Below are positions 23,335-64,000 of a DNA stretch of 64,000 bases, piece after piece; position 1 is the first letter of the stretch; each line of letters starts with the position of its first letter. Location of the stretch: NCBI GenBank assembly GCA_021014945.1, contig MU266362.1:1-64000 (forward strand). Direction: 5' to 3'. Source of the DNA: Leucogyrophana mollusca (Eukaryota; Basidiomycota; Agaricomycetes; Boletales). The translations under genes were made by a program, and so were the position numbers. The notes below the pieces were generated by a model. That model was not told where the DNA came from. It searched no databases and saw only the letters and a list, made by a program, of their open reading frames with translations.

Positions 23335-26300
23335 CTAGGATTTTCCCCCGAAATCGAAATCTCTGTGCATTCTGGCCGAGTCAAAAGACTTGGAAGGTCT
23401 CCTCTGCCTCGGACTGAGAGGGGGGGGGGGCGCTTTAAATGCGTGAGATACAGTTTCATAGCAACATCAACGCACCTTGGAGAACTGGCCCTACTGGTCG
23501 CTGCTTTGCAAACTTCCCAAAACGCTTTCCCGTACGCCGCTGACTTTTGCTGCGTGAGCTGGAGGTCCCCTTCGTAGGAGGTGCCCAGTGCTTCCTCAAA
23601 CGCAACGCGATCTTGAAGAGTGCGAGCCTGTCAGGTATATGGCAGGAGGGGAGTGGGAGGGAGGGGGCATACCAGTCGGACGCAGAACCGCAATGAGCTC
23701 TAATGCGGCATCGTCGAAAATGTCGTCGACAGGAACTTGATCTTTGTCAGAGAGCTAGTAATGACTTCACTATAAGCCTTCCAGTGATAGCTAACATGCA
23801 ATGCCTGCCTGTTGACGTAGCGCCTTCAAATCGCTGAAGAGACGTTGCTCGTCAGTCATCCCATCTGATGCGAGCGAGTCCGGTGCGAACTCTTCCTGAT
23901 TCGGTCTTCCGGAAGGCGCTTGAGAACTTGAAGCAACGGGAACGAATGAATTATCATCCGCATCTTTGATGCGCTCGAAGTCGGAAAACTGATCAACCTC
24001 ATCGTCGTCGTCTTGGTATAAGCTTGCATATTGCTGCTGTTCCAAGACCTTCTGCTTTCCATTTTGTGCGCCTCGTCTCGATGTTATGGTCTTCTTCTTC
24101 GAAGGCCTGGACATAGATAGTGCTGTACCTGTGTCGTCGACTCTGAATTTCAGGACTATTTTGAGTTTCCCGTCGGTGCATTCTTTTGCACCCCGACCGA
24201 GCTTTGGTGGCCTGTCAGTAGAGAAAATCCGGTGAAATAGGAGGTCACGCACCTGGAGATAGTCTTGCGTCCACCCCGAAACCACAACCCTATCTACGCA
24301 GAAGATGTTCAGCGTCATCATTGCGGTGAGGAGTCGATCGATTGTATCCGAGTCCAAGTGACGACCAGCTCCGAATAATGATAATTTTTCGTGACCTAAT
24401 CCTCGGACCTTCTGGTTTTTGCTTCCACGATAGACGTCCTTGAGCTGGTTGAGGGTGAAATGATTGGCGGAGGCAGACATCTGGTTGAATAAATGGATGG
24501 CGTTCAGCCCATCGGGGGTGTAGTCCTGCTCTTTCGCCTTCCCACCCTTGCAGCAATTATCGCAGCTCTTGTGGCAGTCCTTGGCGTCGAAGACCTCTCC
24601 AAAATGGGAAAGCACGAGGGAGCGGCGACAGTCGACGCTGTTGGAGCAGTATCCAACGACATTTCGAAGCTCCTCTTCCAGACGATTCTTCTCTGCCGCG
24701 GGGAGCGTCCTATCTCTATCGCTGCGGATCATACCGAGTAAAGCCGTTGCGTCCTTATAAGCGTAGACTGAATGAAAGTCAGCGATGTACCGGTATAGCC
24801 GGTCTTCGCACTCAACGTACAGAGAACACAATCAGAGGGCTGACCATCTCGCCCTGCGCGTCCTGTTTCTTGGTAGTATCTAGACGTTACGTGTAAGTTT
24901 TGGTGGGATCACGCCGCCGTCGGCTGTACTAGTAAGCGTACCCATCCATCGACTTTGGTATAGTGTGGTGGATGACAAATCGAACTGAAAGAGTCGGTAA
25001 ATCCAGGGATGGTGGGAGAACTGTTGCTGACAGTAACAGACTCACCGTCTGCTTTATCGATCCCCATGCCGAAGGCAATCTGTGCGGTAGAGTCAGACGG
25101 GAGGGGATAGCAGGGGTAAATATCACGAACCGTAGCAACAATGATGTTGAACTTTTTCGATTGCCAGTCAACCTGGGTGGCCTCGCGCTCCTTCGAATCC
25201 AGACCAGCGTGGTAATGCCTTGCTGAGAGGCTGTAATCTGCGCGAAGTTGCTGCGCGACTTCTTCGCAGTCGTTTCGCGAAAAACAGTACACAATGCCTG
25301 TGTCGTTGTGGTGTTGAGATTGAATGTACGCGGCGACCATTTGGATTGATTTCTTCTTCGTGCCCGGCTTTTCGCGGACCTCGTAGTGAAGATTACTTCG
25401 GTTGAATGACTGCGTGAGAGTAACGGGGTCTCGCAGGGAAAGGCTGTTGACAATGTCTTGGATGGTGGACTTATTGGCCGTCGCGGTGAGGGCCATGATA
25501 GGAACATCTGGATAACGCTCACGAAGGACGTGTAGCATGGCATACTGCGACGACGATTCAGTCGGCCGCATGGGGATGGACCCGGAGCAGGACAGTATGA
25601 AGCTGTGGACGTACCGCGTCGCGAAAATCGCGTCCCCAGCTCGCGATAACATGAGCCTCGTCAACCACGAACCGCGCCAGTAGCTTTCCTTCGTACAGTT
25701 CCGTCAGGATGCTCTGCACCTGGTTGCTTTCCTGCAGCTTTTCTGGCGTGATGTACACGATATCAGGCTTCTGGGCGCTTCTCAGTCGTCGAGCAGTGTC
25801 CCAAGCCTCCTCACTGGATGTAGCAGCAGATCCAAGACAACGTGCGTCAATCTTCTTGCCTCGAAGCGCCGCCACCTGGTCGGAGATCAAGGCCACGAGC
25901 GGGGAAAATACAAAAGTCACGCCCTGTGTCCTCCCCGTCTTGCAGACCGCAGGCAACTGATAACATAAGCTCTTCCCCCCTCCAGTTGGCATCAGCACAA
26001 AGACGTCCTTTCCGTCCAGGGTCGCGTTAATGGCCTCGAGCTGATTCTTGCGGAAGGAATCAAGGTTGAACCTTCCCTTAAGCACGGAGATGACCTCTGG
26101 ATAATATGGCGAAGCCGTGCTGTCAACGCGACAGGCTGTCGCTGTCGCTGGTTCAGAGCCTACAACAGTCAAAGCGGAAGACGTCGTCGCTACTTGGGAT
26201 TCAGACTCATGCTGGGGCCCGGGCGGAGGACCAACCGCATCCCAGTATCCGTCATCGCTGTCTGGAACAAGTATTTCCTCAGGTGAATTGTGTATTGAGT

Positions 26301-27545
26301 GAGACTCATCCTCTATCACTTGTACGATGGAGGAGTTGGCAGTGGTGGTGTTCTGGCTCAGAGCTGTTGAGGTTGAGGTTGAGGCCGACGATGACGGTAC
26401 CGACGCCCCGGCGCGCACGAAGTCAGGAGTGCGAGAACGAAACGGTGTGGACGCGGAGGGCATGTGAGGCGGGATGGGCTCCTTGGCCTTGCAACGAGCA
26501 AGCTGCTGCTTGATCGCTTCGACGCGCTTGTCCAGTTGCAACCTGAAGGTCATCTGAGTTACAGCCCCCAGCCGAGTGGTGGGAGTACATACCCGATCGC
26601 GGAGAACATGGCTAAGTCTGAATCTGTGCCATTCTGGTGGTGCTCCAGCATGTTATTCAATATGTGTACCCGAAGATCGTTGTTAGCAGATAGCAGGGCC
26701 TTCAATGATACCGCGGATTGCTGGATATCGCAGAAGATATAAGGGGCGACTGAATAATAGAAGGGACGTTCTCACAGTTTGCAGATCGGAGTGGTCCAGT
26801 AGCGGAGCCCACCCCTGCGAGCCCGCCAGGCCCTGCCGGCTTGCAGTTTTCTTCGGCACACCATTTTCAAAGGGCGAAAACGGGTCGGAGAGCGCGTCTA
26901 CATGCACATGTGCACTCGCTACATTCGAAAGTTCTGCGTCGCTGGACATGTCTTTACGCCTGGGAGCCCAGGTTCGCGAGATCGGGTCGACAAGTCCTTC
27001 GATCACACCACTTAGTTCAGGAAGATTCTCTTTAGTGGCTATATCATGCTTGATGCGCTTCAAGGGATGAGCTTGTTCGCCAGCACCTGGAAAGTCAGAC
27101 GAGGACCGCTTGCTCGGCACGTTGCTCGACACGTCGGGAGTCGACTCATCTGAGGATATGTCAATGACTTGGCGCTGGTTGGGCACCGAAGAACTAAGTT
27201 TCCTTCCGAATCCGGGGGTAGAGAAAGCCGGAAGAGCGTTAGGAGACGAACTCGAGTGCTTGCGCGCTGCAGGAGGGTGAGTCTGGGACCAGTGTATGGT
27301 CGCATGGACGAGCAACTCACTCGTGACATTGTTAGGAACTGACGAAGTTGAAGGTGCACTTGGCTTAAACTTAGACGATGACTGCCATTTTATTAGTTGA
27401 TCTCAGAGCAGCATGGGCGACAAGATCACACCTTCTTTGCACTGGTGCTTGGCGTCGTTGGATGGGCACCAAGGACCGACGTCGTTCCTCCATGGGTCTT
27501 CGGCCTGCGACGTAGATCCGCTAGATTGGTCTGAGGAGTAGACAT
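23335..27545 (-). CDS. SGS1: RecQ helicase, BLM/Sgs1 type
   Basis: This family of 3'-5' DNA helicases dissolves double Holliday junctions with Top3-Rmi1 and restarts stalled forks in the nucleus. From ATG 27545 (MSTPQTNLADLRRRPKTHGG), about 400 disordered residues contain QVIDISSDESTPDVSS. The helicase core follows: LDSFRKNQLEAINATLDGKD, Walker A MPTGGGKSLCYQ, DEAH in VVDEAHVIASWGRDFR, ALTATA, FGMGIDKAD, and QETGRAGRDG across an intron near 24900. The zinc-binding part has CSNSVDCRR and KDCHKSCDNC, and an RQC-like segment follows near 24220-24560. The HRDC-like domain (about 23520-23745) reads VPVDDIFDDAALELIAVLRP, then TDRVAFEEALG and KSAAYGKAFWEVC. After a polypyrimidine acceptor (11 G on plus at 23420-23430), the last exon gives RRPSKSFDSARMHRDFDFGG and TAG 23335-23337. 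The total is roughly 1,150 residues. A rearranged paralogue lies at 57922-59939. Confidence 0.93.
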
Positions 27546-27846: not shown

Positions 27847-29568
27847 ATGTCTGGACAATACTGGTTCCCAAATATGCCCATTGCCGAAATCATGGCTGCT
27901 CTCTCGGAGTGGGGCTTGTCTGTCAGTAATGAGCAGCTCGTCAGGCCATCCTCCGACTTTGTCGTTGGTGTTTACCACGCGTGTCTGGAGCAAGTCACAT
28001 CTTTGTCACCCAGTGCCTTGCATAACCCAGTTCAGAACATCCTCATGTCCATGGACGATGCGAATCCAGTATGACCTTACTTTTGGGCGGACCTGTCTAC
28101 TCACGCGTTTGTATAACCAGGATCTGTACGCTTCAAGCATATCGCAGAATATTATGCTCTACCATCTGTAATATCGACACCAAGTGATGCCTGTCTGTTT
28201 CTAACCTGGAATATAGGACTCGATTCGCAAACGCAGCGCGAATAATGGACTTCAGCGCCAAAGATCTTTACACACCTGAACCAGAGCGTACCCGCTTCAT
28301 CCTTTCTGCATTTATCAACTTCGTAAAGTTCGCGGAGCAGTGTGGACCATTCATCAGCAGCCTCCGTGATAAATCGACGGCTCTCGTCGAAGAACGCGTT
28401 CAAGTCGCACAAGGGCTTTCAGAGATGCAGCACAAACTGGCAGTGCTCAAGTACGCCCATCCAACAGTTTGGGCACCAGACTAATAATGTAATTCCAATA
28501 GGGCACAACGACAAAAGGACGAACCCAAGTGCGAATCGCTGCGACAAGAAAATGCAGCAATTACAGCCCACCTCATGGCAACTAAGGAAGTTCACCAATC
28601 GGTCGTCAAGGACATCGAGAATCTGAAGGTCGAGAAAGCCTCTCTTATCGCACGTAAAGAGGCCTTGAATTCTGAGACCGCGACGGCTATGGACTCCATT
28701 TCTCGGACGCGGTCACGCATAGTACAATCTCCAGAGCGTATCAAGCGCAATATATCTGTGATGGGTGCCACCGCCATCGAGGATAAAAGATCAGTTGCCA
28801 TCCATGAAGCCAAGGCCCGCGACCTGCAGGCCAAAATCTCCGCCCTGTCGAACATAGAGAAGGTACGCCTCGCCACCTGCGATTCTATACACTACTTAAA
28901 AAAAACATTCCGCCTCAGGATGTTCGATCTTGTGTTGAGCAGTTGCAAACCATAGAGAAGGAAGTTCTCGCTCTGGAGGGATCTCAGAAAGAGCTCGCGG
29001 ACCTGAGGGATAGTTTAGACTACAAAAAGATTGAGCGCAGCGAGCTTCAAATGAAGAAAGAGGTTCATACCGTCTCCCAATCTTGCATTGACCGCCCGTT
29101 GTGACTTCCCATATTTCAGCGCGTCATCAAGCAGCTCGGCAATGCTCAAGAGAAACTTGAGCGTGCCCAGCGCCACGCAGAGGAGAAACGGATCGCCAGT
29201 CAACAGACAATTACAAGGCTTCAAAGAGAGTATGAAGAGATGGTCGTCGAGCGTCAAGATAACGACAAGCTAGTGGAGGAACTGCGTGCGGAGGCCGACG
29301 AGATCGAAACCAAGGTCAGATGAAGTCTCAGTCACTTCTTCAATGATTCTAACAGCATTCGCACACTGCGGCTTAGATGTCGGAACACCTAAAAAAGAGT
29401 GAGATCGAATTGAATGAACTGCTAACCGAATACTGGAAGCTTCGGCATGAGACTGGTGAGATACTAGTGCATATCCATCGCTGGTAACCCACTTACACCC
29501 GTCCATGCGCAGAGGTATACATGGAAACTCTTGCGAATAAACTTAATATGAGCGTCTCCTCAGAATAA
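27847..29568 (+). CDS. NUF2: Kinetochore protein NUF2 (Ndc80 complex)
   Basis: Nuf2 pairs with Ndc80 to bind microtubules at the outer kinetochore. The start is ATG 27847 (MSGQYWFPNMPIAEIMAALS). The N-terminal calponin-homology fold includes LSEWGLSVSNEQLVRPSSDF, then (after introns near 28070-28120 and 28160-28215) SISQNIMLYHL, TRFANAARIMDFSAKDLYTP and EPERTRFILSAFINFVKFAE, the family signature. The rest is a long coiled coil (about 28330-29560) with heptad-like Leu/Glu/Lys composition, split by short introns. The protein ends LANKLNMSVSSE, with TAA 29566-29568. The length, about 450 residues, fits the family. It is convergent with the ING gene, 221 bp apart. Confidence 0.94.
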
Positions 29569-57316: not shown

Positions 57317-57921
57317 TTCACGCAGATGCTTTTTTGCTTTCAATATTTACTACCCTTGGTTGCTAGATTCCTATACATAACCGAGCTGGCTTTCATTTCA
57401 TACCCTCCAGCCCTCTGTAATTTACCCCTTGCACCTCAACATAATGCTCGCATCATTCAATACAGTTGCCTTGGACCTCGATGGCTAGCCCTTCCTAAGC
57501 GGACCTTCGTCAGTGTGTCCTGCTCCTCCAGATTTCAACGAGACTATTTCTCCATAGAACCAAATTCATGTACCGACAAAGGTCGAGACGGGCCTACGAG
57601 CTCAGCGACGGTGCGTTGTGCTTCCAATTAAGTACCCCGATTTAGTCGTTGATAAGAGCTTGGGTGGAGGAGTACCTAAGGGACAATTGTCCTTCACCTT
57701 ACGCCTCCTCTCAACAAACTGGAGGAGCTGTGGCCTAGAGCGAAGGTTTTGGGTGGAAAGAAAATGTTCTCTACAACCAACACACCCCCTACTGACCTTC
57801 AAACTGTACCAAAGGTAATACTGTTCGCATAGCACGGGGTAAGGACACACTGACGAGGCAACAGCGAACGTCGAAATTCAAACCAAGCAGATGTCAGCCC
57901 ACGCACAGCACACTGAGCAAC
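57317..57921. other. Spacer between the DYRK gene and the RecQ-like copy
   Basis: About 600 bp. No family is recognised. It does not match the region upstream of the parent RecQ gene, so the duplicated copy has a different 5' context. It presumably holds the DYRK 3' UTR and the copy's promoter. Confidence 0.4.
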
Positions 57922-59939
57922 ATGCCCAGCAAACGGCCCTTATCTGGTGTCTGCGAACAGAGGCCTACTCAAGATATCTCCAGAGGTGACAGTTACATGG
58001 ATGGGGTTGGGTCTCCATCCGGGCCTCGCCTCGAGCCTAAATTGCAAGCGGCAGCGACGCATTCCTTTTTGACCGCTGTAGGTCCTGGGCCACAGTCGGC
58101 GTCAGTTGGTGAGGCCTCGAGGCCGCACTGTCCGGGGGTAGCCCTTGGTGACCATCCAACAACACCGAGCACCAGTGCACAGAAGGTGATCTTGTCGCCC
58201 ACGCTGCTCTGAAATCAACTAATATAATGGCAGTCATCGTCTAAGTTCAAACCAAGTGCCCCTTCAATTCCGTCGGTTCCTAACAATGTCACGAGTGAGT
58301 TGCTTGTCCATGCGACCACACACTTGTCCCTCAGCTTCCTGTTACAGCGCGCTCGTCTCCTAACGCCCTTCCGGCCTTCTCTGCCGCCGGATCCGGAAGG
58401 AAACTCAATTCGTCGGTGCCCTACCAGCGCCAAGTTATTGACATGTCCTCAGATGAGTCGACTCCCGACGTGTCGAGCGAGGTGCCAAGCAAGCGGTCGT
58501 CGTCTGACTGTCCAGGTGCTGGCAAACAAGCTCATTCTCTGAAGCGCCTCAAGCACGACATGGCCACCAAAGAGGATGGTGCGCCCAAGAAGACTGCAAG
58601 CCGGCAGGGCCTGGCGGGCTCACAGGAGTGGGCCCCGTTGCTGGACCACTCCGATCTGCAAACTGTGAGAACAATCGCTTCTGCTGCTCAGCTTGCCCCT
58701 CATAGTGCGATATTCAGCAATCCGTGGCGTCGTTGGAGGCCCTGTTATCTGCTAACAACGATCTTCGGGTACACATATTGAATAACATGCTGGAGCACCA
58801 CCAGGATGGCACAGATTCAGACTTAACCATGCTCTCCGCGACCAAGTATGTACTCCCACCATTCGGCCGAGGGTTGTAACTGAGATGGCCTTCAGGTTGC
58901 AGCTAGACATGCGCATCAACGCCATTAAGCAACAACTGATTCGCTGCAAGGCTAAGGAGCCCATATCGCCTCGCATACCCTCTGCATCCGTACCATTTCG
59001 TCCCGACTTCGTGCGCGTCGGAGCGTTGGTACCACCGTCGACGGCCTTTACGTCAACAGCTCCGAGCCAGAACGGTACCGCTGTCAGTGTCTCGGTCGTA
59101 CGAGGGGGTGACCCTCACGCAATGGACAATTCACTTGAGGAGGTACTTGTTCCAGACAGCAATGACGGATGCTGGGATGCGGCGGAGCCTCAGGCTCCAC
59201 CCGCGCCCCAGCCCGGGTCTGACCGCGCCAATGAGAAGCTCAAGGTAATCCCGAGATCCAGAGTAGACGACACAGGTGCAGCACTATCTATGTCTAGGCC
59301 TTCGAAGAAGACCACTACTTTAGCGTCGGGACGAGGCGCCCGAAACGGCGGGCAGAAGGTCCCAGGACAAGAGCAATATACAAGCCTATACCAAGATGAT
59401 GACGGGGCCGAGCACTTCTCCGAACTCGAACCCCCCAAGGATGCGGTCGATGTTTTACCGGTCCCCACTGCTTCAAGTTCTCGGGTGCTTTCCGGACGAT
59501 CAATTCGAGGGGGGGTTCCACTGGCCCCGTTGGCATCGCATAGGGGAAAAGAACACCCCGCACCCCCATCTTCGAAAGAAACGAGGAAACTACGGCAAAG
59601 AGTAAGTTGCTGCTTGGCCTTCAAACACCTGGACTTAATGGTCTAGTTGCAGCTTTGTGAAGAACATAACCTGCTTCCGAAGGACATCCTAAGTGACTTA
59701 GCAATGGAGCATTTGACTTTCGCATGTCCGACCGGTACGCCTCAGCTGTACTCGTCGTGCTGGAGCTGATACGCCTTAAAGACTTGGACCAATTCGAACG
59801 TTTGCTTGTCGATATCGGCGAGAGAAAATCCTACGAGAAGCGAGTTCTGTGGGGTGATGAATTCTGTGGGGTCTACAGAGCCTCTAAGTCAACCAAATCT
59901 GCCCCGCGCATTGATGCGGCAGGCCAGCCAAAAATGTAA
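57922..59939 (+). CDS. Helicase-less RecQ paralogue (RecQ N-terminal region fused to tail and HRDC-like domain)
   Basis: Spliced by analogy with the parent at 23335-27545, this gene stays open to TAA 59937-59939, giving roughly 570 residues. Exon 1 starts MPSKRPLSGVCEQRPTQD, unlike the parent. Homology begins near 58138 (HPTTPSTSAQKV), then KFKPSAPSIPSVPNN, QVIDMSSDESTPDVSS, KRSSSDCPGAGKQAH, SRQGLAGSQEWAPLLDHSDL, LSANNDLRVHILNNMLEHH and LQLDMRINAIKQQL. Introns match the parent in position and largely in sequence. At about 59230 the parental helicase, zinc and RQC segments are absent. The frame passes from QPGSDRANEK directly to RVDDTGAALSMSRPSKK, the parent's post-RQC linker. Later exons give EEHNLLPKDILSDLAMEHLT, then PTDLDQFERLLVDIGERKSY, an HRDC-like pattern. 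No Walker A or DEAH remains. It could be an expressed regulator or a pseudogene with an intact frame. Confidence 0.7.
58138..59560 (+). repeat. Segmental duplication of the RecQ gene, internally deleted
   Basis: This block is a diverged copy of the minus strand of about 23860-27490. The parts at 58138-58570, 58580-58850 and 58890-59225 match the parent's N-terminal exons and introns; 59240-59560 matches the parental linker at about 23860-24170. Introns are retained, so the copy arose at the DNA level and not through a spliced transcript. Missing relative to the parent are about 54 codons after KHDMATKED and the whole helicase-to-RQC region. By eye most aligned blocks are highly similar; I did not compute an identity. 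Confidence 0.85.
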
Positions 59940-60159: not shown

Positions 60160-61686
60160 TCATATTTCAGCGTTACCAGCTCCATCCAGACATCTAAGCT
60201 TCAAGAAAACGTCACTCCCTACAGGTTCGTCAGGTTAACAAGATCTGAAAGAGGTACGCAGAGTACTTACCCCAACCATCTAGGGAGAACAAGTCCAATG
60301 AACCGCCAAAGTACCTGAGAGGTCGCAGCATTACTCTGTTAGTGAAGACAAGCATTTAAATCGCTAGAACTTACTTTGCGTATAGTCTACTCATCGGAAG
60401 GCCATACCCCAACCCTGCGATCGTTCCAAGGCCAATCTGTACCCCTTTCCCAGTGATTTCTCCGAACAGGTTACCTTCGCCCGATCCGTCGCTACCAATC
60501 GCAGCGCTCCCGCCAACGTGCTGCGCTGCGTAAGGCCCACCTCCATTGTCATCACTGTCTCCTCCATGCCCTGCTGTAGTAAATGCATACGAGAAGATCC
60601 GTGCCATATTTGAGGGGGACACGCCTCCGCCTTGGTCTCGAACTCTTATCGAGAGGAAGGGGGTCACGCCGGATGGAGGCGAGATTGTTATTTGTACTGA
60701 GGGGAGGTTTTTAACAGATGAAGTGCCGTGAAGTTTATAGTGGTGCTCCACGGTAGCGCGGAATGCGTTCTTTAGGATCTCAGTCAGAATGTACTCTAAG
60801 TGGACTGGAACATAGCTGAGAAGGGTCGTCAGGTGAGTAGCCCTGAGGGAAAAGGGAACAAAGGTTGCGTACGCAAAAGTTGCACCGGGATGTCCGTCTA
60901 TTGTGATGGATGGGCTCATACCAAGGGTCGCTTCACAAAGCTCGCTGACGAATGACCCACACATTCTGACCATATTCGCAGGGGAACATCGCATATCGAC
61001 TATCCCGTAATGAGACGACAGGCCACTCGGTTCGTGCGACGACAACGCATGAGAGAGTGCTATATGCTGTTCCGCGATGAGTCGCACAGAAATTCTGTTG
61101 CGAATGGCCCCGTCGAGGAAGTTGCTAATTTGTGTGGGCGACATGTATCGCGAACACTCCTGGAATCTACCCGTGAGATATACTGAGTGCCGCATCGATG
61201 TATGCAGAGACAGTTCACTCACCCCTTCGCCATAGTGGGGATGTCATTACGGTGGCTCTCTACGAGGTGGTCCAATTGTGCCGTGAACTGCGCGTTTTCC
61301 TCGAGGTTTCTGACGGGCGGATAAGTCGCGATGAACTGAAAGCTATCCCTGTACGCGCTCAATGTCTTTGCTACGTAGGGATTTGTGCCGACGATGAACG
61401 GTAGCGCCTCGAGAGTGCGGACGCGAGTTGCCAGACGGCGGGGAATCTCAGATAGAACGTACGAAACGGATCTCAGGATCGAGTCAGGCGTCAGAGGTTT
61501 CCCAAATGATACCAACGTCGACAGCGTCAAGGGCAGAGGCGGGTGAGAGGCGAAACTTGCGAGCAGCTGGGCGACCTCGCCAGACAGAGGCTCGGGTGCT
61601 TTGCGCACATGGAACCGCCGACGTTTAGAGGAAGCAAGTAACGCGTGGCTTCGCAGTGGCGAGAGCTTGCCGTTGGTCAGCTTCAT
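60160..61686 (-). CDS. Mitochondrial dehydrogenase kinase, PDK/BCKDK family
   Basis: This family phosphorylates and inactivates the E1 subunit of pyruvate or branched-chain 2-oxoacid dehydrogenase in the mitochondrial matrix. It starts at ATG 61686 with MKLTNGKLSPLRSHALLASS followed by KRRRFHVRK, a basic head that fits a targeting presequence. The N-terminal helical part includes LVSFGKPLTPDSILRSVSY, RRLATRVRTLEALPFIVG and SRYMSPTQISNFLDGAIRNR. The GHKL ATPase part has the N-box EILKNAFRATVEHH (near 60765), the G1 box RVRDQGGGVSPSNMARIFSY (near 60630), and the G2 box GLGTIAGLGYGLPMSRLYAK (near 60390). After an intron near 60242-60295, SDVFLKLRCLDGAGNAEI ends at TGA 60160-60162. It looks closer to yeast Pkp1 than Pkp2, but I cannot settle pyruvate versus branched-chain specificity. 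Confidence 0.92.
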
Positions 61687-61891
61687 GATAGACTTACGAG
61701 GAGAATAAAGAATTGGCAGAGTCACAATGGCTCACATCGAGAAAGGCAAACGGGCGGAACTCGGTCAGACACTAGTCTCAGGCTGACTGTGTCTGATAAA
61801 TCCGAATCATTACGTTTCTTCCTCTTTGCCACAGGATAATGATAGTGCTGATGATGATGATTAAAACTATGAAGGGAATACAATGGAGAAT

Positions 61892-63826
<1,935 letters not shown>

Positions 63827-64000
63827 TTTGCAATGTTGGAATGAAAGGAGTACGGGGTTCTCGAGAGTCGAAGGACGCGTCACTGTCAATAGTGGCACTG
63901 GGAGCGGGACTGGGATACGCGTCTCGGTTGTACCCGATCAATTCAGAGTCCGCTTAGAGGGTGCTCAGAGGCGCGGGCTCAAGCCGCAACGAAGCTTGTC
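63827..64000. promoter_or_regulatory. Upstream region of RPT1
   Basis: The last 174 bp lie upstream of the RPT1 start on minus. No gene is seen. I did not find a clear proteasome-associated control element (GGTGGCAAA, Rpn4 site) by eye; basidiomycetes generally lack that system. Confidence 0.3.

What the first reader, a model, noticed from the sequence alone, without database searches (positions are those of the whole stretch)
57922..59939. A second RecQ gene that has lost its helicase but kept an open frame into an HRDC-like domain
The copy matches the BLM/Sgs1-type gene at 23335-27545, including introns. The complete helicase, zinc and RQC section is missing, and the reading frame passes uninterrupted from the N-terminal region to the post-RQC linker and on to an HRDC-like module (pattern L-x-KD-I-L-SD then PTDLDQFERLL). 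In-frame survival through several introns suggests selection or very recent origin. Sgs1/BLM N-terminal regions bind Top3-Rmi1 and HRDC binds DNA, so such a protein could compete with, tether or regulate the full helicase. That role is inference.
Basis: partly seen in the sequence, partly recalled or inferred. Interest (0 to 1): 0.88.

Follow-up and report, generated by a model that had tools for sequence, protein, structure and literature searches.

The report
Helicase-less mosaic BLM/Sgs1 gene copy
A wood-rotting fungus carries, near its BLM-type DNA-repair helicase gene, an unbroken second gene that keeps the helicase's two ends but has lost the motor; it may encode a motor-free helper or competitor of the repair complex, though nothing yet shows that it is used.

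Summary
The window is from Leucogyrophana mollusca (Boletales). The locus is the deposited gene BV22DRAFT_1193402: 607 aa, 8 exons, 57764-59939, open throughout. It derives from a BLM/Sgs1-type gene like that at 27545-23381 but lacks parent residues 380-939 (helicase, zinc, nearly all of RQC). Its C-terminus is an HRDC domain by profile.

It is neither a simple nor a very recent copy. Unit B (58143-59222) is 79-85% identical to the parent, the linker 74%, the HRDC codons 42% (synonymous sites saturated). The first exons hold a second, more diverged piece of the pre-helicase linker, in permuted order. It is a mosaic, probably from partial duplication, gene conversion and in-frame deletion.

The frame was probably guarded for much of its life: no stops, and 8 of 8 exonic indels are multiples of three. 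Pairwise dN/dS corrected for transition bias is 0.61-0.70 (bootstrap 0.47-1.04) and cannot separate a weakly constrained copy from a neutral one. No orthologue was found; expression is untested. Best guess: a motor-less scaffold or competitor of the Sgs1-Top3-Rmi1 complex. Main rival: a relic not yet broken.

The parts
57764..59939 (+). Helicase-less BLM/Sgs1-type paralogue, deposited as BV22DRAFT_1193402 (607 aa); exons 57764-57814, 57865-58185, 58234-58294, 58348-58664, 58718-58845, 58896-59601, 59653-59734, 59782-59939
   Evidence: spliced translation equals P0001 letter for letter, 7 GT-AG introns
57764..58140 (+). Unit A: first N-terminal piece (TSKFKPS after an intron) fused to a piece of the pre-helicase linker
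   Evidence: residues 59-109 match parent 362-415, score 96 against shuffle maximum 76, 0 of 1000; DNA 0 of 300 shuffles; genome search E 4e-4. The first 45 aa alone is weak (21 of 1000 shuffles reach its score)
58138..59222 (+). Unit B: second N-terminal region, parent-like (85-79% DNA), with four introns shared with the parent
   Evidence: BLASTN; alignments
58647..58956 (+). Helical block of unit B (residues 245-313, with an intron), two long helices; candidate N-terminal oligomerisation hairpin
   Evidence: single-sequence AlphaFold2, 10-residue block means 80-93 pLDDT over residues 251-310; alignable across Agaricomycete Sgs1 N-termini
59209..59235 (+). In-frame deletion junction: parent residues 380-939 (helicase, Zn, most of RQC) missing
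59233..59528 (+). Post-RQC linker, 73% nt identity over aligned codons (BLASTN block 59235-59537 is 74%)
59578..59894 (+). HRDC domain (residues 521-593), split by two introns
   Evidence: four low-confidence helices at 519-588
23381..27545 (-). Parent: full BLM/Sgs1-type RecQ helicase, modelled here as 14 exons and 1149 aa (not checked against transcripts); the deposited model (821 aa) is shorter at both ends
   Evidence: the only RQC match found in the assembly

Best explanation
The locus is a protein-coding mosaic paralogue of the fungus's BLM/Sgs1-type RecQ helicase. Shown: an open 607-aa frame over 8 exons; loss of the whole motor; retention of the N-terminal region (parts of it twice), the post-RQC linker and an HRDC; and segments of unequal divergence. 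Inferred: it arose from an older RecQ copy that lost its motor in frame and was partly overwritten by parent sequence (tandem partial duplication and gene conversion). Inferred: its protein works without ATPase, as a scaffold or competitor. It would bind partners of the Sgs1/BLM N-terminus (Top3-Rmi1, RPA) and Rad51 through the linker, possibly pair with the parent through the helical hairpin, and touch DNA or the parent's ATPase through the HRDC, thereby tuning the dissolution complex.
For: Deposited gene model reproduced exactly. No stop in 607 codons; neutral mutation of 458 parent codons at bias-corrected divergence leaves no stop in 0.65-1.75% of 2000 runs per setting; earlier settings over 388 codons gave 0.45-6.5%. 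Exonic indels in the aligned tracts, counted by eye, are multiples of three in 8 of 8, intronic ones in 1 of 6 (p 0.003). HRDC pattern kept despite saturated synonymous sites. Synonymous differences 85 of 290 in the tracts against 44 of 53 in the HRDC (p 2e-13), hence a mosaic. Confident helical hairpin at 245-313. Helicase-independent roles of Sgs1 and RECQ4A: passages of PMC7074392 and PMC3919593; BLM N-terminus controls oligomerisation: passages of PMC9042962.
Against: Corrected dN/dS is 0.61 (ML) and 0.70 (YN00, bootstrap 0.47-1.04 on 200 replicates); a parent at 0.1 with a neutral copy at 1.0 reproduces the counts. Shared introns (12% different) are no more diverged than nonsynonymous sites. 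At conserved columns the copy lost the consensus more often than the parent at every threshold tried: 8 and 5, 9 and 6, 11 and 5, 9 and 8; for 8 (or 7 without a start-Met artefact) P of so few losses under neutrality is 0.015-0.17. No orthologue among proteins searched. No expression data. The acidic motif PDSDD..W has N for a D that all compared Boletales-like rows keep (76% of the wider set). Isolated HRDCs of BLM and Sgs1 bound DNA weakly or not at all in some studies (passage of PMC7074392). Frame-keeping may date from a time when the copy still had its helicase.
Confidence: 0.42

Rival explanations
1. A relic in decay: a RecQ duplicate that lost its motor and now drifts, still open by luck or because the deletion is young.
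For: dN/dS compatible with a neutral copy; introns and nonsynonymous sites diverged alike; other broken pieces of the same gene on C228 (148 bp) and C123 (159 bp with a 13-bp gap); no orthologue found.
Against: No stop, counted exonic indels all in frame, seven introns keep GT-AG; HRDC pattern still recognisable.
Confidence: 0.4
2. The retained parts serve at DNA or RNA level (a donor for gene conversion into the parent, or a source of antisense or small RNA), not as a protein.
For: Patchy identity to the parent suggests sequence exchange; 59 bases of exon 4 are identical to the parent.
Confidence: 0.1
3. Gene-model or assembly artefact: the copy is a collapsed or chimeric assembly of the parent.
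For: Draft assembly of 545 contigs.
Against: At least 15% divergence from the parent in each BLASTN block, both genes on one 167-kb contig, separate deposited models.
Confidence: 0.04

Closest known systems
Sgs1 / Rqh1 / BLM (RecQ helicases with RQC and HRDC)
   Same: N-terminal region, post-RQC linker, HRDC, shared introns with the local parent; derived from the same kind of gene
   Different: no ATPase or zinc domain and almost no RQC; part of the N-terminal region present twice and permuted
Arabidopsis RECQ4A/RECQ4B paralogue pair and helicase-dead RECQ4A (PMC3919593, passages)
   Same: a duplicated BLM-type gene; motor-independent functions of the N-terminus
   Different: both plant paralogues keep the helicase domain (recalled); the dead form there is engineered
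Sld2 (region homologous to the RecQ4 N-terminus; PMC4757822, search listing only)
   Same: a motor-less protein corresponding to a RecQ N-terminus
   Different: other RecQ branch, conserved, no HRDC (recalled)
Truncated, helicase-deficient RECQL4 (PMC13076768, search listing only)
   Same: a motor-less RecQ product can suffice for a cellular role
   Different: mutant alleles, not a separate gene

Membership tests
RecQ helicase (BLM/Sgs1 type) | DEAD/Helicase_C motor | tested here: not met
   no helicase family in the copy (573-aa version without exon 1 scanned); parent residues 380-939 absent
RecQ helicase (BLM/Sgs1 type) | RecQ zinc-binding and RQC winged helix | tested here: not met
   only about the last dozen RQC residues remain
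RecQ helicase (BLM/Sgs1 type) | descent from a BLM/Sgs1-type gene | tested here: met
HRDC domain | HRDC profile match over the domain | tested here: met
   37.5 bits with an 11-sequence Agaricomycete HRDC profile, itself matching solved RecQ HRDCs 1wud, 2rhf, 2ma1; Pfam PF00570 does not reach the copy and gives the parent 18.4 bits, under its cut-off of 23.8
HRDC domain | compact helical fold | tested here: inconclusive
   four helices at 519-588 but low pLDDT, single-sequence model
BLM N-terminal dimerisation bundle (DHBN) | similarity to the BLM 362-414 bundle | tested here: inconclusive
   confident hairpin 245-313; no convincing sequence match in PDB; fold hits look like generic hairpins
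Top3-Rmi1 partner | binds Top3-Rmi1 | not testable with these tools
   needs biochemistry
Functional gene | dN/dS clearly under 1 on its own branch | tested here: inconclusive
   pairwise NG86 0.43, YN00 0.70 and ML 0.61

The most novel reading that the evidence does not exclude
A natural separation-of-function gene: a fungus has split off a motor-free BLM/Sgs1 protein with a doubled N-terminal region that assembles with the helicase or its partners and sets how recombination intermediates are handled, analogous to how Sld2 relates to RECQL4.
Probability: 0.25. Interest if true: 0.75.

Novelty: new variant of a known kind. Interest (0 to 1): 0.42.

Why it matters
If translated, it is a natural version of motor-less Sgs1/BLM alleles otherwise made in the laboratory. 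It would let one ask which duties of the Sgs1/BLM complex need no unwinding, and whether a paralogue can tune crossover control. As sequence evolution, it shows a gene built from segments of clearly different divergence while keeping one frame across eight exons.

Tried and rejected
A first dN/dS by Nei-Gojobori (0.43, 0.31-0.59) looked like clear purifying selection. It ignores the strong transition bias (155 transitions, 56 transversions); with YN00/ML it rises to 0.70/0.61, so I dropped it as proof. Likewise the conserved-column test (P 0.009-0.019) weakens to 0.015-0.17 with corrected divergence.

A tree of HRDCs (28 rows chosen by me of the 72 complete enough) could not say whether the copy's HRDC is old or merely fast: AU p 0.32 for copy plus parent as one clade.

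Aligning full-length orthologues to the copy with the alignment tool placed C-terminal residues of the copy in conserved helicase columns (seen in the summary; searches did not look better), so the structure was predicted from the single sequence. Fold searches returned what look like generic helical hairpins, best Foldseek E 0.47 (50 rows each shown). BLM's DHBN was not among the rows shown, which proves nothing.

The PDB search of the N-terminal helical block gave nothing convincing (best E 0.04); phmmer of the whole protein gave none. No held paper contains BV22DRAFT. Searches for helicase-less RecQ paralogues showed no such natural basidiomycete gene in the titles and abstract starts listed (15 of 44 papers, 7 of 8); most subscription journals are not held.

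Full report
WHERE IT IS. A protein search with the spliced product identified the genome as Leucogyrophana mollusca and the locus as the deposited hypothetical protein BV22DRAFT_1193402, 607 aa. The window is bases 1-64000 of a 167,473-base contig in a 32.3-Mb, 545-contig assembly. Exons 57764-57814, 57865-58185, 58234-58294, 58348-58664, 58718-58845, 58896-59601, 59653-59734 and 59782-59939 translate to the deposited protein letter for letter, all seven introns being GT-AG.

THE PARENT. The gene at 27545-23381 (minus strand) models as 14 exons and 1149 aa; its splice sites are my choice, guided by frame and GT-AG, without transcripts. On an earlier version of the model with a longer C-terminus Pfam finds DEAD, Helicase_C, zinc-binding and RQC domains, and a sub-threshold HRDC (18.4 bits, cut-off 23.8). 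By my reading its deposited record (821 aa) starts late and runs into an intron inside the HRDC. RQC gives one match in the whole assembly, in this gene.

WHAT IS MISSING AND WHAT IS KEPT. Parent residues 380-939 are absent. The frame runs from the acidic pre-helicase region straight into the last residues of RQC and the linker. The C-terminus is an HRDC: a profile of 11 Agaricomycete Sgs1 HRDCs chosen by me, which itself matches solved RecQ HRDC chains (1wud, 2rhf, 2ma1), scores 37.5 bits on the copy and 52.2 on the parent (best domain). Of 200 C-terminal shuffles 133 gave any score, the best domain being 0.0; of 100 whole-protein shuffles 32 did, best domain -1.1 (best whole-sequence score of any shuffle 1.6). 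hhalign gives 95.7% and E 9e-9. The Pfam model alone misses the copy. A single-sequence AlphaFold2 model has low mean confidence (41) but a confident two-helix hairpin at 245-313 and four low-confidence helices at 519-588.

IT IS A MOSAIC. Identity to the parent is 85% (58143-58577), 79% (58576-59222) and 74% (59235-59537), and stops abruptly on both sides. In the HRDC only 42% of aligned codon bases agree; synonymous differences are 85 of 290 in the two tracts but 44 of 53 in the HRDC (p 2e-13). Upstream, residues 59-109 match parent residues 362-415, the pre-helicase linker (0 of 1000 protein shuffles and 0 of 300 DNA shuffles reach the score; also found by genome search). The copy therefore reads: N-terminal piece, linker piece, second N-terminal region, linker start, [motor deleted], post-RQC linker, HRDC. 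A second SKFKPS motif directly behind an intron suggests that the first exons are an original N-terminus, but that short match alone is weak (21 of 1000 shuffles). The simplest history is an older paralogue, tandem duplication of the N-terminal unit or its conversion by the parent, and an in-frame loss of the motor. An HRDC that simply evolves very fast is not excluded: over comparable lengths the best identity to any other row is 30% for the copy's HRDC and 34% for the parent's (a 35-residue fragment gives the copy 37%), and the tree is unresolved.

IS IT UNDER SELECTION? For: 607 open codons, where composition predicts 22 stops. Neutral mutation of 458 parent codons at the corrected divergence leaves them stop-free in 0.65-1.75% of 2000 runs per setting; the settings over 388 codons gave 0.45-6.5%. 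Exonic indels in the aligned tracts, counted by eye, are multiples of three in 8 of 8, intronic ones in 1 of 6 (p 0.003), though some indels belong to the parent's branch. Against or neutral: dN/dS is 0.43 by NG86 but 0.70 by YN00 (bootstrap 0.47-1.04) and 0.61 by ML. Simulations show that parent 0.1 with copy 1.0 fits as well as parent 0.4 with copy 0.6. The four shared introns differ at 24 of 199 sites, no more than nonsynonymous sites. Where at least half of the wider set of relatives agree (84 columns) the copy alone lost the consensus 8 times and the parent alone 5 times; three other settings gave 9 and 6, 11 and 5, 9 and 8. P of so few copy losses under neutrality is 0.015-0.17 depending on the divergence used. 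I conclude that the frame was probably guarded for much of its history, and that amino-acid-level constraint is unproven.

RELATIVES AND DEBRIS. No orthologue of the truncated form was found: the full-length search returned only itself and the parent, with scoring limited to the 7995 candidates that share most words; the C-terminal search returned only itself among 364 candidates. The parent's best full-length relatives are 43-47% identical over 82-94% of the query, and a partial Suillus record 60% over 54%, so close kin may simply be unsampled. Two broken pieces of this gene lie elsewhere: C228 (148 bp, 89% to the parent and 95% over 115 bp to the copy) and C123 (159 bp of helicase with a 13-bp gap). 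Over 115 bases the C228 piece shares 9 changes with the copy, has 1 of its own and the copy 5, and it lacks the copy's 162-bp deletion. So a fuller copy of that lineage probably once existed. Two neighbouring stretches of about 4 kb used as controls gave no such pieces, except one 73% match of about 130 bp.

MECHANISM (INFERENCE). In yeast the Sgs1 N-terminus binds Top3-Rmi1 and others, Rad51 binds just after RQC, the HRDC contributes to DNA binding or touches the ATPase (though isolated BLM and Sgs1 HRDCs bound DNA weakly or not at all in some studies), and helicase-defective Sgs1 keeps some repair function (passages of PMC7074392). Plant RECQ4A has helicase-independent suppression of recombination (passages of PMC3919593). 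The BLM N-terminus controls oligomerisation (passages of PMC9042962) and carries RPA-binding motifs (passages of PMC10479964). The copy keeps the counterparts of most of these regions without the motor, so a scaffold or competitor is the most natural guess.

VERDICT. A real, correctly spotted, helicase-less and HRDC-bearing paralogue; a mosaic rather than a recent copy; function plausible but unproven.

Noticed in passing
G000:C228:19988-20135 (L006 7989-8136) and G000:C123:6163-6308 (L029): Short broken pieces of the same RecQ gene (N-terminal and helicase) in other places; the C228 piece groups with the copy and lacks its 162-bp deletion. How they got there is unexplained.
   Followed up: partly
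window 27545-23381: The deposited parent protein (821 aa) seems to lack its true N-terminus and to read into an intron within the HRDC; my exon model gives 1149 aa, not checked against transcripts.
   Followed up: partly
window 58746-58804 and 26692-26634: 59 bases of exon 4 are identical between copy and parent although fourfold sites over the tracts differ by 24%; possible recent conversion tract or strong constraint.
   Followed up: no
G000:C115:44396-44530: The only PF00570 (HRDC) match of the assembly-wide exon search (30.5 bits); perhaps the exosome nuclease Rrp6 (recalled, not checked). The intron-split RecQ HRDCs escape that search.
   Followed up: no
window 27850-28500: The gene divergent from the parent helicase looks like the kinetochore protein Nuf2 (recalled from its sequence, not searched).
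   Followed up: no
window 60300-64000: Downstream neighbours look like a mitochondrial protein kinase (BCKDK/PDK type) and a proteasomal AAA ATPase (Rpt type), both recalled from sequence, not searched.
   Followed up: no
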